Shown: positions 55,020 through 62,800 of the stretch, piece by piece
How positions within the stretch are numbered: position 1 is the stretch's first letter
Layout of the letters: the number at the start of each line of letters is the position of its first letter
DNA from: Acidobacteriota bacterium
GTDB taxonomy: Bacteria; Acidobacteriota; Vicinamibacteria; Vicinamibacterales; UBA2999
DNA: 64,000 nt
Reading direction: 5' to 3'
Assembly: GCA_030697165.1 (NCBI GenBank)
Contig: JAUYQQ010000019.1
Coordinates: 186,001 to 250,000, forward strand
Translations under genes and position numbers: made by a program
Notes under the pieces: generated by a model
What the model was told of the DNA's origin: nothing
The model's database searches: none
The model's input: the letters and a program-made list of their open reading frames with translations, nothing else

Positions 55020-55247
55020 CTAGGATTCGGGAGGACGCTCGCTGCGGCGCGCCTTGTAGACGTCGCAGTCTTCGCAATTGCGGAGGTCGAACTCGTAGCG
55101 AACGACCGGCCAATACATGGGGTGGGCGCAGTAGACCAGTTCGCCGTCAACGATGGTGTGCGAGCCGAGGTCCTCGGGCAGGTCACCGGTGCGCCGGCCG
55201 TACCAGCAGGTGCGGTGGCGTTGCTCAGGCTCCACAGGGGCGATCAT
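55020..55247 (-). CDS. Small cysteine-containing hypothetical protein
   Basis: A 75-residue protein with Cys residues at 14, 40, 58 and 61 (TCWYGRR; YCAHPMYW; NCEDCDVYK). It may bind a metal. No family is recognised. ATG at 55247; an upstream extension of the frame to 55622 is antisense to yggX and unlikely. Moderate confidence that this is a real gene. Confidence 0.55.
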   Translation of the reverse strand: MIAPVEPEQRHRTCWYGRRTGDLPEDLGSHTIVDGELVYCAHPMYWPVVRYEFDLRNCEDCDVYKARRSERPPES

Positions 55248-55301
55248 AGCCGGGATCACTCCCGGTCGCGACGGAGTAAGATTGGAGCGGAGGCGCCAGC
55301 A

Positions 55302-55631
55302 ATGAGTATGTGTGGAGGACCGACCGGTCCACCTGACCAGCCGGTCACCAACAAGTCGGGACGGACGGTGTTTTGCGTGAAGTTCCAGAAGGATCTTCCC
55401 GGACTCGATGCGGCCCCCTGGCCCGGCGAGATTGGCCAGCGCGTCTACGAGAACGTGTCGGCCCAGGCCTGGAAGCTCTGGGAGGAACGCCAGAAGATGA
55501 TTCTCAACGAGTACCGTTTGATGCCCTGGCAGAAAGAAGGCCAGGAAATGATTCGGACCCACATGGAGGACTTCTTCTTCGGCGCCGGCTCTGCGCTGCC
55601 GCCCGACTTCGTACCCCAGCAATCGAAATAA
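55302..55631 (+). CDS. yggX: Fe(II)-trafficking protein YggX family
   Basis: A 109-residue small cytoplasmic protein that protects iron-sulfur clusters from oxidants. RTVFCVKFQKDLPGLDA, then WPGEIGQRVYENVSAQAWKL and RLMPWQKEGQEMIRTHMEDF are the family blocks. The conserved Cys (VFC) is present. It has about 20 extra N-terminal residues (MSMCGGPTGPPDQPVTNKSG), including a further Cys. ATG at 55302; ATG at 55308 is an alternative. It converges with the ATP-grasp gene without a gap. Confidence 0.93.
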   Translation: MSMCGGPTGPPDQPVTNKSGRTVFCVKFQKDLPGLDAAPWPGEIGQRVYENVSAQAWKLWEERQKMILNEYRLMPWQKEGQEMIRTHMEDFFFGAGSALPPDFVPQQSK

Positions 55632-56903
55632 CTACTGCGGCAAGACCTCGAGCCACGGCTCGATCGAGACCACCAGCCGGCCGTGTGCCTCGCGCACCGA
55701 CTGCTCCGCCGCTTCCGGCGTCGGCCCGTGCGCGAAGATGAACCCAAGGTAGCTGGCCCCTTCCGGCAGTGCGACCAGGTGCTGATCGGGCTTGGCCGTC
55801 ACCAGCACATCATCAACGCCGGCCACGGCCTTCGCCGCGTCCACGCCGGCCACCCCGCGGAATACGCCGCTGCGCGCAATCGGCATCATCATCACCGCCG
55901 AGGCCTCGGGCTCGCGCTGCCACTCGCCCCGCGGCTCGCCGAGCGCCAGCCGCAGCAACAGGTGTTCGAGACCGACCGGCGGCTCGCCCGGCTTCACGAA
56001 TCGCAACGCCTTCGCGCACAGCCCGCCGATTGGCCGGGCCGCCACTTCCATGACATACACGCCACTGCTGTTGACGCGGCACTCGGCGTGCACCGGGCCA
56101 TGGTGCAGGCCGATGGCCTGCGCCGCGCGCCCGACCACTTCTTGAATCTGCCGCTGCACTGCGGCGTCGGCACGGGAAGGGGTCACGTAGATCGTCTCTT
56201 CGAAGAACGGGCCGTCCAGCGGATCCGGCTTGTCGAACACCGCCAAGGTGTGCAGCCGGCCGTGTTCCATCACGCCTTCGAGCGCGTACTCGGCGCCGGG
56301 AATGTACGACTCGATCTGGATGACGTCGGCCTCGGCGTCACGAAGGTCCCGCACGTCACTCGACCCCAGCAGCCGCCGCACCCGCGCAAACGCCGTCACG
56401 AAACTCATCGCATCATCGGCGCGGATCACTCCGCGGCTGGCCGACAGCACGGTCGGCTTGATGACCACGGGAAACGACACCCGCGCGAGCAGGGTCGCTG
56501 GATCGGTGGCGGCCGGCACGGTGAAGAACGCGGGCACCGGCAACCCTGCCGCGCGAAGCCGCTCGCGCGACAACCGCTTGTCGCAAGCGATGGCCGCGGC
56601 GGCTGGCGGGTGGCCCGGCAGGCCCAGCAGCCGGGCGAGGTGCGCAGCCATCACGCTGGGGCGGTCACCCACGACCAGCACCCCCGACACGGGCCGGGCC
56701 TCGAGCGCCTTCAGGACGACATCCACCGATCGCCACTCCTCGTGAAAGCGAACCGGAATCGCGCCGTCGCGCCACGGGTCGTCGAGGTGATCGCAACGGT
56801 CGGTGGCATAGACCAGCTCGATGTCCAATGCCGCAGCCGCCTCGGCGAACATGCGGGTCTGGTAGCCGGTCGTCGTCGCCAGCAACAGAATCCTTGAACT
56901 CAT
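55632..56903 (-). CDS. ATP-grasp domain enzyme coupled to the radical SAM selenoprotein
   Basis: A 423-residue ATP-grasp ligase of the carbamoyl-phosphate-synthase-like type. N-terminal Rossmann part (SSRILLLATTTGYQTRMFAE), ATP-binding Lys in FPVVIKPTVLSASRGV, metal-binding VHAECRVNSSGVYVMEVAAR, and a C-terminal lid domain. ATP-grasp enzymes form amide bonds via acyl phosphates. ATG at 56903 overlaps the extended stop of the radical SAM gene as ATGA. The alternative TTG at 56939 would overlap the TGA now read as Sec. The substrate is unknown; it probably acts in the same pathway as the radical SAM protein. Confidence 0.9.
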   Translation of the reverse strand: MSSRILLLATTTGYQTRMFAEAAAALDIELVYATDRCDHLDDPWRDGAIPVRFHEEWRSVDVVLKALEARPVSGVLVVGDRPSVMAAHLARLLGLPGHPPAAAAIACDKRLSRERLRAAGLPVPAFFTVPAATDPATLLARVSFPVVIKPTVLSASRGVIRADDAMSFVTAFARVRRLLGSSDVRDLRDAEADVIQIESYIPGAEYALEGVMEHGRLHTLAVFDKPDPLDGPFFEETIYVTPSRADAAVQRQIQEVVGRAAQAIGLHHGPVHAECRVNSSGVYVMEVAARPIGGLCAKALRFVKPGEPPVGLEHLLLRLALGEPRGEWQREPEASAVMMMPIARSGVFRGVAGVDAAKAVAGVDDVLVTAKPDQHLVALPEGASYLGFIFAHGPTPEAAEQSVREAHGRLVVSIEPWLEVLPQ

Positions 56904-58237
56904 AGCAGAGCCACCTGCTCTGCGGTGGGCTCCGCTCAACAGTACCAGGGTTCGTTCAGGTAAGGAACGTCGGTGCGAAGGCGCGGGGCCGAGGCCAGCG
57001 CCATCATCTGCTGCTGAAGTTCATCGACGCGCGGATCGGGGTGGCGCCACGGGAAGGTCAAGGTCTTCTGGTCGAAGGGACCAATGACCTGCTGGATGTC
57101 TTCCAGTTCCAGCAGCCGCGATTGCCATGTCACCAGGAGGCGAATGCCCCATTGGATCGGCGAGACGTGCGACGTGAGGCCGGCTGCCTCGACCACCTCC
57201 TGCAAGTCGCGATAGCCCTCGAGCGTGGTCCACGGCGTGAACGCCACGAACGTGGGAACCAGCGTCAGCCCTTCGTCCCGGCACAAGGCGGCGGCCGCCA
57301 GAAAGCCGGCGCGCGTATGTCCCTTCTCGAGTTTCGCCAGCACCTCATCATCGACCGACTCCACCGCGCTCGTCACGAACAGGCAGCCGGTCCGCGACAG
57401 TACCGGTAGCAGCTCGCGGTGCTGCAGCAGGTGCTCCACCTTGATGATCACATCGTAGGTGACGGCCGGGAACGCCGCGTGCAGCGCCTCGACCAGCCTG
57501 CGCGCGTGCGTCGGGCCGTTGAAGAAATCGGGATCGCCAAACGTGATGTGCGTTGCGCCGCCGGCCACCAGGGCCGCCACGTCGGCCATCACGACCTCGA
57601 TCGGCACGACCCGGAACTGACCGTCGTAGACCGGCACGATCGGACAATGACGGCAGCGATGCTTGCACCCGCGCGTGGCATCGGTGGCGCCGACGACCTT
57701 GCGGCTGCCGTCCGGCATCTGCAAGCTGGCATAACGGTCGAGCGCCGGCAGGCCGGAACGGTCAGGCTGAATGAACGCCAAGCGTGCCAGGGGTGCCAGA
57801 GGTGCCAGGGGTGCCAAAGGTGCCAGGGTGCCGGGTGCCAGGGTGCCGAGTGCCGGCGTGCGTAGTGCCGGCGTGCGTAGTGCCACAGCGGCAGCTACCA
57901 GTTCCTCTTCGCTTTCGGGCCCGAGCACGATCGACACCCCGTGTTCGCGCAACAGGGCTTCGTTCAGCGGCGCATACAAGCCGTATGCGGCGATCGTCAG
58001 TGATGGATCGATGGCGCGCAGGCGGGCGATCACCGGCAGGGCCAGTCGCGTCGCCGTGTGCATGGGCAGGTATAACGCCGCGAGGCCGGCACCGGTCATG
58101 ACGTCCGGCGAGAGCTTGTCGCGCGACAGGTCGATGCACCTCACCTCGAACCCGGCCCGCTTCAACCACGCCGCCGGCGACGCCAGGCCGAACGGCTGGC
58201 GGCCGAGGTCGAAGGTGCTCAGCAGGACGACGCGCAC
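56900..58237 (-). CDS. CUAEP-tail radical SAM selenoprotein with B12-type N-terminal domain
   Basis: Radical SAM enzyme, 445 residues when the TGA at 56936-56938 is read as selenocysteine; conventional reading stops after 433 residues at NEPWYC. The extension reads Cys-Sec-Ala-Glu-Pro then TAEQVALL. This matches the tail of the family called CUAEP/CCAEP-tail radical SAM (seleno)protein. The extended stop overlaps the ATP-grasp ATG as ATGA, which supports read-through. N-terminal residues about 1-110 resemble a cobalamin-binding-type domain (LLSTFDLGRQPFG); the cluster motif is TRGCKHRCRHCP (CxxxCxxC). Between them is an Ala-Pro-Leu repeat linker from a minisatellite. GTG start at 58237. The reaction is unknown. 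Confidence 0.88.
56905..56923 (-). promoter_or_regulatory. Putative bacterial SECIS hairpin
   Basis: On the minus strand GCAGAGC and GCTCTGC form a perfect 7-bp stem around the loop AGGTG. It starts 12 bases after the TGA at 56936-56938. The E. coli fdhF element has its apical stem about 11 bases after the TGA and a GGU in the loop; here the loop holds GGU too. Confidence 0.75.
57783..57892 (+). repeat. GTGCC-based minisatellite in the radical SAM gene
   Basis: Plus-strand units of GTGCCAGGG, GTGCCAGAG, GTGCCAAAG and the like, then longer GTGCCGGCGTGCGTA units. On the coding (minus) strand they give LAPLAPLAPLAPLA and LRTPALRTPALGT. The same GTGCCNNRG unit is found in the HerA-like gene at 16551-16613. 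Confidence 0.85.
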
Positions 58238-58264: not shown

Positions 58265-59764
<1,500 letters not shown>

Positions 59765-59811
59765 ATGCGAAGCGTATTCTATCCCTGAGCTCACCCACTG
59801 GGCGATGACCG

Positions 59812-62800
59812 GTGAGGCGGCGATTACTGTATCCTGTGCCCCTCCGGACAGGCCGATTGCCCCAGCCAGCCTCGCTCGCCAGCTTCGTGCCCCGCGAAAT
59901 CGGCTACGCCCTGGCCGAGGGGACAACACTGAGTCCGCGGACCACCGGCGCCGCGCTCGTCGCCGACATTTCCGGCTTCACGCCATTGACGGCCACGCTC
60001 GCCGCGCAGCTCGGCCCGACCCGGGCGGCCGAAGAGCTCGTTTATCACCTTGACGGGGTCTTCGAGCTGCTCGTCAACGAGATCCACCGCTATCGAGGCA
60101 GCGTCATCGGGTTTGCCGGGGATGCTGTCACCTGCTGGTTCGACGGCGGCGCCGAGCCCGAGGAACGAGCCGCCGCGCGGGCGGTCGCCGCGGCAACCGG
60201 CATTCGTGACGCCCTGCGTGATCGTCACATTACTTCGCCGAGCGGCCAGGTGTTCCCGATCAGGGTCAAGGCCGCGATCGCGACCGGGCCGGCCAGCCGC
60301 TTCCTGGTGGGCGACCCGGCGCATCAGAAGTTCGAAGTCATCGCCGGCGCCATCATGGATCGCACGGCGCGCGTCGAACGGACGATCACCAGCGGCGAAG
60401 TTGGCGTATCCGCCGAGGTCGCCGAACTGCTACAGGCGCAACTGCAGATCAGCGAGTGGCGCACCGGCCCGCACGACGCGCCGGTGGCCATCATCAGCCG
60501 GCTGGCCAGGCCCGTGACGCCAGACCCCTGGCCCGCCGAACCGCGCCTCGATGAGGCCGGCGTCCGTCCGTGGATGGTCAAGGACGTGCTCGAACGCCTC
60601 ACCCGCGGGGAAGAAGCGCTGATGGGCGGCTTCCGGCGCGTGGCCGCCCTCTTCGTCACACTCGGCGGCATCGACTACGACCACGACCCAGATGCCGGCC
60701 GCAAACTCGACGCCTTCGTGCGATTCGTTCAAGAGGTTCTTGCCGCCTACGACGGACACCTTGTTGACCTGACGATGGGTGACAAAGGCAGCTATCTGTT
60801 TGCGGCCTTTGGCGCGCTCAGGACGCACGAGGATGATGCGCGGCGCGCGGTGACGGCGGCACTGGCGCTGCGAGGCTCTGGAGGAGATGCCGACAGACCC
60901 GATGCTGTTCGCATGGGTATTGCTCACGCCCAGGTCTATGTTGGCGCCTATGGCTGTGCGGCACGCCGAACCTTTGGCATCGTGGGACGCGAGGTCATCG
61001 TCGCGGCCCGGTTGATGGGCAAAGCCGAGGCCGGGCAGACACTGGTCACTGCCGACATCGCGAAGGCCTCGGAACGCTCGCACCGGTTCGATCAGCTGGG
61101 GCCGATGCTCCTTAGTGGCCTGCAAGGTCCCCGAGAGGTTCACCTGCTGCAGGGCGAATCCGACGCGCCGTACCATGCCACCACCAGCTCGACCCCCATG
61201 GTCGGCCGACACCGCGAGGTGGCGCTGATTCGTGATGCCCTGGCTCGCCCCTCCGCCACTCCCGGCGCGCGCGCCGCACGCCTCGTCATCGAGGCCAACG
61301 CCGGCATGGGCAAGTCCACCCTGCTGCAGGCGACCCGGCTCGTCGCCGAGGCCAGTGGCGTCCGCCTGCTCTCCGGCGGCGCCGACGCCATCCGCCGATC
61401 AACGGCGTATCACGCGTGGCGACAGGTGTTCCGCTCGGTGTTCGGCCTTTCCGATCGTCGCATGGGGAGACCGGAAGAGCCCGGCCTGGCCGAGCGGCAC
61501 TGCCGCGAGCGGCTGGGCGCCATGGGCGCCGAGTGGGAGCGCCTGGCGCCGCTGCTCAATCCCGTTCTCGGGTTGTCGATTCCCGATAATCGAACGACCC
61601 GCGCGATGGCGGGCCAGGTTCGGGCCGACAATGCTCACGACCTGTTGATCCGGGTACTGCAGGCCGAGAGCGACCAAGGGGCCGTCGTCCTGTTCGTCGA
61701 GGATCTGCATTGGTTCGACTCGGCGTCGGCGGCGCTGCTGCGTCTCGCCGCTCGCGACCTGTCTCGCATTCCCATCATCGCGACCCGCCGCCTCAGCACC
61801 GAGATCTCGCACGGGTGGCAGGTGGCACCGGATGCGCAGATCATTGTTGTCGGTCCGCTCAGTGATACCGAAACCGACGAACTGCTGCGCGGCGTGCTCG
61901 CGGTAGACTCCATTCCGGCCGACCTGACGCGCTGGATTCTGGAACGCGCCGAAGGGTCGCCGTTCTTCACTCGAGAATTGGCGTTGGCCCTTCGCGACGC
62001 AGGCGCCGTGACCATCGAGGGTCGCGCCTGCCGGCTGGCGCGCACGGTCACGGAGCTCACGAAACAGGACTTTCCCGACACCGTTCAGGGAGTCATCGGC
62101 AGCCGCCTGGACCGGCTGCCGTCACAGCAGCAAACGGCGGTGAGGGTGGCGAGCGTAATCGGGCGCCTGTTCGCCATCAGGTTGCTCGGCGACGTCTACC
62201 CCGTTACCGAAGATCGACCGGGCCTGCCTGAGTCCCTCGCCGGCCTGAAGACCGCGGAGATTGCGCAGCCAGTTGGCGCCGCCGTCGAGCCGTCGTATCT
62301 GTTCAGTCATGCGCTGATCCAGGAAGTGGCCTACGCCGGTCTGCTGCACCAGCAACGGGCGTCACTGCATCTCGCGATTGGAGAATGGATCGAGCGGCAC
62401 CCCTCCGGCGATGCCGGCACCGACGTGCCCTTGCTGGCTCACCACTTCGCCCACGCCGCTCGGGAGGAACGGACCTCGAGCACCGTTCGCAGCAAGGCGC
62501 TGAAGTACCTTGGCGACGCTGGGGCACAGGCGTTGAAGGCGTATATCAACACCGAGGCGGTCCGGTTCTTCCACGAAGCCCTCGACCTGGCCGGTAGCGA
62601 GGCCGCGCCCGACGCGCTGCGGTGGCATGCGGGCCTCGCCCACGCGCACATGGCGCTGGGCGAATTCGGCGCGTGCCGGCAGCACGCCCGCACGGCCCTC
62701 GACCTGCTGAACATGCCCTTTCCCGCTGGCAAGGCTGGCGTCGCCCGACAGACCATCGGCGAGCTGGCGCGGCTCCTCTGGCGGATGACCCGCCGGCGGT

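What the first reader, a model, noticed from the sequence alone, without database searches (positions are those of the whole stretch)
56900..58237. Radical SAM gene is a selenoprotein hidden behind an in-frame TGA
The frame appears to end at NEPWYC with TGA at 56936-56938. Translated through as Sec it continues Cys-Sec-Ala-Glu-Pro-Thr-Ala-Glu-Gln-Val-Ala-Leu-Leu and stops at 56900-56902. The CUAEP tail is the signature of a known but uncharacterised radical SAM (seleno)protein family. Three independent signs agree: the tail motif, a 7-bp hairpin with a GGU loop starting 12 bases after the TGA, and the extended stop forming an exact ATGA overlap with the ATP-grasp gene. Standard gene callers would truncate this protein by 12 residues.
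Basis: partly seen in the sequence, partly recalled or inferred. Interest (0 to 1): 0.93.

Follow-up and report, generated by a model that had tools for sequence, protein, structure and literature searches.

The report
Selenium-containing radical enzyme, relative of ArsL
A bacterium carries a radical enzyme whose last stretch contains selenocysteine, written as a stop codon; the family is already catalogued, but its tail and gene neighbours suggest that it makes an unusual amino acid that is then built into a small peptide.

Summary
The minus-strand radical SAM gene (58237-56900) has an in-frame TGA at 56936-56938; read as selenocysteine it ends YC-U-AEPTAEQVALL. The genome has selA, selB, selD and tRNA-Sec. 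Of 78 relatives with a readable tail, 52 have TGA and 26 a Cys codon there. A hairpin 12 nt after the TGA is kept in Sec forms (325 of 371 pair cells) and mostly lost in Cys forms (76 of 182). In a phylum sample all 37 TGA forms lie in genomes with a SelA match. It is a member of NCBIfam NF040546, so the kind is known; no paper naming it was found. New here: the next family is ArsL (arsinothricin synthesis), whose tail Cys-Cys aligns with Cys-Sec, and a dipeptide-type ligase follows directly in 54 of 79 loci. Proposed: Cys-Sec holds an acceptor onto which a SAM fragment is transferred, and the ligase makes a peptide of the product. Arsenic genes are not nearby, bar one ArsC-like frame, so the acceptor is unknown. 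The mechanism is inferred; a redox role of Cys-Sec is the main rival.

The parts
56900..58237 (-). CUAEP-tail radical SAM selenoprotein gene, GTG start, 445 aa with Sec at residue 434
   Evidence: NF040546 570.2 bits, Radical_SAM PF04055
56936..56938 (-). in-frame TGA = Sec434
   Evidence: aligned with TGC/TGT in 26 and TGA in 52 of 78 readable relatives
56939..56941 (-). Cys433 codon, vicinal to Sec434; C433 invariant in 51 aligned proteins
56905..56923 (-). bacterial SECIS-type hairpin, 7 bp with loop AGGTG (56912-56916)
56900..56902 (-). true stop TGA, overlapping the ATP-grasp start (ATGA)
57644..57667 (-). CX3CX2C motif (C191, C195, C198) for the radical SAM [4Fe-4S] cluster
   Evidence: invariant in A1
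55632..56903 (-). ATP-grasp L-amino-acid-ligase-type gene (ATP-grasp_4 + LAL_C2), likely on the same transcript
   Evidence: directly downstream in 54 of 79 loci
58265..59929 (-). POT/PTR2 family peptide transporter directly upstream, start codon uncertain
   Evidence: relative found in 31 of 80 loci
55122..55631 (+). YggX-like Fe(2+)-trafficking frame (family match from residue 81; the true start is probably later)
   Evidence: relative found in 51 of 80 loci

Best explanation
Shown by sequence: the gene is a selenoprotein gene of the CUAEP/CCAEP-tail radical SAM family, with a SECIS hairpin just downstream of the UGA and SelA/SelB/SelD/tRNA-Sec in the same genome. Inferred: the enzyme works like its nearest relative family, ArsL. 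A B12-binding-type Rossmann domain and a radical SAM barrel cleave SAM, and the C-terminal Cys433-Sec434 pair, which takes the place of the Cys-Cys of ArsL's RCCLKC tail, holds the acceptor (a soft, chalcogen-loving element or a small molecule that bears one) while a SAM-derived fragment such as 3-amino-3-carboxypropyl is transferred. The amino-acid-like product is then joined to another amino acid by the overlapping ATP-grasp ligase and moved by the POT transporter. YggX would help to keep the Fe-S cluster supplied or repaired. My belief in the selenoprotein part is about 0.97; the confidence given here, 0.3, is for the mechanism as a whole.
For: Selenoprotein: machinery; TGA/Cys exchange in 52/26 of 78, at least 10 switches on the tree; third codon positions vary while AEP is kept. 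Hairpin: standard pairs in 325 of 371 cells in Sec forms against 76 of 182 in Cys forms, covariation score 0.367 against shuffled 0.171 and slid at most 0.168, core stem in the best fold of 45 of 53 Sec and 2 of 26 Cys forms with the first 9 nt left out. SelA match with 37 of 37 TGA forms and 5 of 8 non-TGA forms that reach the tail (Fisher p 0.004). Mechanism: ArsL is the second-best NCBIfam match, 265.7 bits; C433 and C/U434 are invariant across 7 CUAEP and 3 RCCLKC proteins; an ATP-grasp ligase also lies in 2 of the 3 RCCLKC clusters read (Priestia, Alicyclobacillus), 26% identical to the window's in the one compared; ligase directly downstream in 54 of 79 loci. ArsL's reaction as proposed in PMC8552651 (passages seen). 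A 2026 review lists adjacent Cys-Sec ('CU') in several families tied by name to mercury or metals (HgcA, SaoL, SaoC, MbdU) and says that Sec may be a metal ligand in SaoB, SaoC and UXX-star proteins (PMC13188914, passages seen).
Against: No arsenic genes lie near CUAEP genes apart from one ArsC-like frame in L046: 13 query proteins from ArsL clusters searched in 80 loci plus the window. The tail differs outside the Cys pair (AEP... against LKC at the very end). The ligase match is of the level of the wide ligase family, so it does not show orthology; in 20 of 80 loci no ligase was found (some of those loci are short); the third RCCLKC cluster read, with arsQ and arsM, shows no ligase in the stretch seen. 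The window protein lacks about 30 residues of the linker before the tail that most aligned relatives have, as do L020 and L022. No atomic coordinates were available, so the distance from Cys433-Sec434 to the cluster was not measured. One Sec-form genome (L087, a 1.3-Mb assembly) gave no SelA match. Two of the five covariation measures do not exceed shuffles.
Confidence: 0.3

Rival explanations
1. Selenoprotein as above, but Cys-Sec is a redox relay, not a substrate clamp: it forms a selenylsulfide that feeds electrons to, or protects and repairs, the oxygen-sensitive cluster, while the chemistry is an ordinary 5'-deoxyadenosyl radical reaction (for example a dehydration or epimerisation, as in its closest solved fold AprD4).
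For: YggX-like gene in 51 of 80 loci, an NfuA-type Fe-S carrier (NifU + Fe-S_biosyn domains) directly upstream in L048; closest solved fold is AprD4, Z 27.6; most described CxxU/UxxC selenoproteins are redox proteins (general knowledge).
Against: The pair is vicinal (CU), not CxxU; the Cys pair is also in ArsL, whose proposed reaction names no such redox step (passages); AprD4 family score 35 against a cut-off of 500, and the aligned range with AprD4 ends before the tail.
Confidence: 0.3
2. Selenoprotein in which the N-terminal Rossmann domain binds cobalamin and the enzyme is a B12-dependent methyl- or alkyl-transferring radical SAM enzyme; the Cys-Sec pair binds the acceptor.
For: The model aligns over most of its length with MgmA (Z 26.8), TsrM (26.4) and OxsB (26.3), of which TsrM and OxsB are titled as cobalamin-bound or cobalamin-dependent; a B12-binding hit below the Pfam cut-off exists in an RCCLKC protein (25.1 against 32.1 bits).
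Against: Pfam B12-binding does not match the window protein at E 0.001; AprD4, which scores as well, is not described in the hit title as cobalamin-bound.
Confidence: 0.2
3. The TGA is a real stop or an error; the downstream similarity is chance.
For: A standard frame ends there, and the annotated Thermomicrobium roseum relative stops at the same place too.
Against: 52 of 78 readable relatives share the TGA and 26 read through it with Cys; conserved AEP beyond it; SECIS covariation; SelA association.
Confidence: 0.02
4. TGA codes for another amino acid (for example Trp) throughout this genome.
For: None beyond the open frame.
Against: The aligned residue is Cys in the 26 relatives without TGA; a tRNA-Sec with anticodon TCA is present; the extended gene itself ends at a TGA at a place that fits the relatives' ends. 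TGA use across the genome was not surveyed.
Confidence: 0.005

Closest known systems
NCBIfam NF040546, CUAEP/CCAEP-tail radical SAM (seleno)protein
   Same: Score 570 over cut-off 500, CX3CX2C, CUAEP tail: it is a member.
   Different: Shorter linker before the tail than most aligned relatives, and a long low-complexity linker at about residues 120-150.
ArsL (NCBIfam NF040542, RCCLKC-tail; arsinothricin biosynthesis)
   Same: Next-best family, same length and layout, 31-33% identity in alignment A2 and vicinal Cys pair at the C-terminus, ATP-grasp ligase in 2 of the 3 clusters read.
   Different: 265.7 bits against a cut-off of 450; AEP tail instead of LKC and Sec in place of the second Cys; one ArsC-like frame but no other ars-cluster relative nearby in 80 loci plus the window.
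AprD4 (PDB 6fd2), radical SAM diol dehydratase
   Same: Closest solved structure, Z 27.6, rmsd 3.3 over 381 residues.
   Different: 21% identity; its aligned range ends at model residue 417, before the tail; family score 35 against 500.
Families with adjacent Cys-Sec (HgcA, SaoL, SaoC, MbdU) listed in PMC13188914 (passages seen)
   Same: A Cys-Sec pair; the review says Sec may be a metal ligand in SaoC.
   Different: Not radical SAM proteins by the names in that table; no homology was tested here.

Membership tests
NF040546 CUAEP/CCAEP-tail radical SAM (seleno)protein | whole-protein score above the curated cut-off of 500 | tested here: met
   570.2 bits; 547.5 in the genome frame
NF040546 CUAEP/CCAEP-tail radical SAM (seleno)protein | C-terminal C[U/C]AEP tail | tested here: met
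   read-through tail CUAEP; in 78 of 80 relatives the tail could be read and is C[U/C]AEP in 77 and CUSEP in L093; the best local profile match stops before the tail (profile position 405 of 468)
NF040546 CUAEP/CCAEP-tail radical SAM (seleno)protein | CX3CX2C radical SAM motif | tested here: met
   C191, C195, C198 invariant in 51 aligned proteins
bacterial selenoprotein | in-frame TGA aligned with Cys in homologues | tested here: met
   52 TGA, 26 Cys of 78
bacterial selenoprotein | SECIS hairpin directly downstream of the TGA | tested here: met
   in the window a competing fold has lower energy over the full 45 nt
bacterial selenoprotein | selA, selB, selD, tRNA-Sec in the genome | tested here: met
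bacterial selenoprotein | selenocysteine present in the protein | not testable with these tools
   needs 75Se labelling or mass spectrometry
ArsL (NF040542) | score above the curated cut-off of 450 | tested here: not met
   265.7 bits; 0 of 297 genomes of the phylum sample over the cut-off
ArsL (NF040542) | RCCLKC tail | tested here: not met
   tail is WYCUAEP...; only the Cys pair aligns
ArsL (NF040542) | beside arsM, arsQ, arsN or other ars genes | tested here: not met
   13 query proteins, no hit in the window and one ArsC-like hit (L046) in 80 loci at E 1e-8
ArsL (NF040542) | transfers 3-amino-3-carboxypropyl from SAM to As(III) | not testable with these tools
   needs enzyme assays
AprD4 family (NF033070) | score above the curated cut-off of 500 | tested here: not met
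   35.2 bits
cobalamin-dependent radical SAM enzyme | binds cobalamin in the Rossmann domain | tested here: inconclusive
   fold matches, but no Pfam B12-binding match for the window protein

The most novel reading that the evidence does not exclude
A widespread, unstudied pathway of Acidobacteriota and some other phyla: a selenocysteine-armed relative of ArsL forms a bond between a SAM-derived amino-acid fragment and a soft element or other acceptor held by Cys-Sec, and a partner ligase makes a dipeptide of the product. This would be a second, arsenic-independent branch of arsinothricin-type chemistry in which selenium is the tool. In the window the loop of the SECIS hairpin with the next base (AGGTGG, 7 nt before the ATG; read) might also serve as ribosome-binding site of the ligase, tying its translation to selenium supply.
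Probability: 0.25. Interest if true: 0.85.

Novelty: new member of a known kind. Interest (0 to 1): 0.48.

Why it matters
If the mechanism is right, it makes a large orphan family testable: 51 of 297 sampled genomes of the phylum carry it, and natural Cys forms (26 of 78) should be expressible without selenium machinery. It would extend ArsL-type chemistry beyond arsenic and give a clear reason for selenocysteine in a radical enzyme. Even if not, the tail is cut off when TGA is taken as a stop, as in a Thermomicrobium roseum entry, and the part lost is conserved.

Tried and rejected
Arsenic as the acceptor, argued from neighbours: searched and not found, so I claim only an ArsL-like mode. A genuine stop, a sequencing error or a general TGA reassignment: rejected on the relatives and the machinery. 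The ATGA overlap as a family-wide sign: rejected, 11 of 38 Sec loci. Direct placing of Cys-Sec in the model: not possible, as no coordinates are given; the secondary structure only shows short strands at 426-427 and 435-436 on either side of the pair, with mean pLDDT 69 for residues 431-440. A first clustering of neighbour frames merged most frames into one cluster and, through a wrong slice of mine, held no window frames; replaced by anchored searches. The second tRNA-Sec match over the gathering score (L003) is a tRNA-Ser(TGA) by ARAGORN and is not counted. Papers: 'CUAEP' 0, 'RCCLKC' 0, 'NF040546' 0, ATP-grasp with radical SAM and arsinothricin 0, and no 'AEP' or 'NF0405' in a 2026 inventory (PMC13188914, word search and passages). 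Two papers cited there (Haft and others) were looked for and are not held, so absence from print is not shown.

Rows dropped before counts: L037 (cut off) and L059 (masked) from the 80. Alignment A1 used 50 of the 80 loci plus the window. In the SelA test five non-TGA genomes whose match ends before the tail (G188, G128, G001, G213, G099; all with a SelA match) and the window's own genome were left out. 'No TGA' in that test is the tool's stop count, not a read Cys codon. For G080 the SelA evidence is two weak partial matches, one at a contig edge. Three of the 16 RCCLKC or ArsL plasmid records were opened.

Full report
What is there. On the minus strand a GTG frame runs from 58237 to a TGA at 56938-56936; read on, it gives ...LNEPWYC-U-AEPTAEQVALL and ends at TGA 56902-56900, which overlaps the ATG 56903-56901 of an ATP-grasp frame that ends at 55632. 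The protein matches NCBIfam NF040546 with 570 bits (cut-off 500) and, next, ArsL with 266 bits (cut-off 450).

Is the TGA selenocysteine? The genome (5.39 Mb, 23 contigs, 100% complete by the tool's figure) has selA, selB (309 bits, cut-off 242), selD with an in-frame TGA (CAGUASK; that this is the usual Sec site of SelD is recalled), and a tRNA-Sec with anticodon TCA. Of these, 78 have a readable tail: 52 with TGA and 26 with a Cys codon at the site, followed by AEP in 77 and SEP in one. On a tree with ArsL-type proteins as outgroup the two states need at least 10 changes; well-supported branches alone force 8.

In a sample of 297 genomes of the phylum, 51 hold the family (48 over the cut-off). 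SelA was found in 47 of the 50 other than the window's: in 37 of 37 with a TGA in the match, in 5 of 8 without TGA whose match reaches the tail, and in 5 of 5 whose match ends before the tail. The three genomes without SelA are non-TGA. Fisher p for 37/0 against 5/3 is 0.004; the genomes are related, so this is a guide, not a strict probability. In 16 further genomes behind loci, SelA was found in 7 of 8 Sec forms (missing for L087, a 1.3-Mb assembly) and 4 of 8 Cys forms.

The hairpin. Columns 13-19 pair with 25-31 after the TGA. In 53 Sec forms (52 plus the window) 325 of 371 cells are standard pairs; in 26 Cys forms 76 of 182. The covariation score is 0.367, against 0.171 for shuffles (0 of 500 as high) and at most 0.168 for slid versions. 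Two of the five measures, the counts of pairs with a change on both sides and of further pair types, do not exceed shuffles (133 and 280 of 500 as high), so part of the signal may be relatedness. Loop G21 is invariant and T23 is in 52 of 53. With the first 9 nt left out, the core stem is in the best fold of 45 of 53 Sec and 2 of 26 Cys forms. In the window itself the full 45 nt prefer another hairpin.

Neighbours. Within the DNA held for each locus (up to 9 kb a side, often less), a relative of the window's ATP-grasp ligase was found in 60 of 80 loci, of the YggX-like gene in 51, of the POT transporter in 31, of the molybdopterin oxidoreductase in 19 and of the FkbM-type gene in 5. The ligase lies directly downstream on the same strand in 54 of 79 (38 Sec including the window, 16 Cys). 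In three of four Methylomirabilota (NC10) loci (L048, L068, L087) it lies upstream instead, and in L063, L084 and L093 a YggX-like frame lies directly upstream of the radical SAM gene (L084), so the partners recur in different orders. Much of the Acidobacteriota count is shared ancestry. In 20 hand-picked neighbour proteins I saw two amino-acid permeases, an NfuA-type protein, two further ligases, a YggX and a range of unrelated families.

Link to ArsL. [quoted passage not shown] In an alignment of seven CUAEP and three RCCLKC-type proteins, the two terminal Cys positions are invariant; the gap before them is long, so the placement rests on the motif as well as on the aligner. Two of the three plasmid clusters opened hold an ATP-grasp gene; the Pseudomonas one, with arsQ and arsM, does not within the stretch read. 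A review says that Sec may be a metal ligand in some selenoproteins (PMC13188914, passages seen). That RCCLKC binds arsenic is my inference; a search for the word found no paper.

Structure. The model has mean pLDDT 91.4 and pTM 0.90: an N-terminal B12-binding-type Rossmann domain and a radical SAM barrel, judged by its matches. The best solved matches are AprD4 (Z 27.6), MgmA (26.8) and TsrM (26.4); these are nearly tied and do not decide for or against cobalamin.

Verdict. The likely function, an ArsL-like transfer with Cys-Sec as acceptor clamp followed by ligation to a peptide, is a proposal from sequence, with a redox role of the pair as the main rival.

Noticed in passing
window about 57780-57875 (-) and L001 about 2870-2950: A minirepeat around TGGCACC expands a linker of the radical SAM protein, and a repeat that reads GTLGTLGTL... 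lies beside selA in the same genome; perhaps a genome-wide variable repeat.
   Followed up: no
window 55122-55631 (+): A YggX-like Fe(2+)-trafficking gene keeps company with the CUAEP gene in 51 of 80 loci, in several arrangements.
   Followed up: partly
L120 8935-10371: Thermomicrobium roseum plasmid protein WP_012643191.1 is annotated as CUAEP/CCAEP-tail yet ends at ESWFC before TGA GCG GAG CCG, so the record seems truncated at a Sec codon. Whether that genome has selA was not tested.
   Followed up: partly
L054 and L094 tails: Two Cys forms still fold as near-SECIS hairpins, as if Sec was replaced by Cys recently; one search counts two Cys forms with the core stem but did not print their names.
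   Followed up: no
L017: selD of the window's genome itself has an in-frame TGA (CAGUASK).
   Followed up: yes
L121 3178-4706, L123 2659-4209: Plasmid RCCLKC-type clusters of Priestia and Alicyclobacillus hold an ATP-grasp ligase and a carboxymuconolactone-decarboxylase-like gene, which suggests peptide forms of their product.
   Followed up: partly
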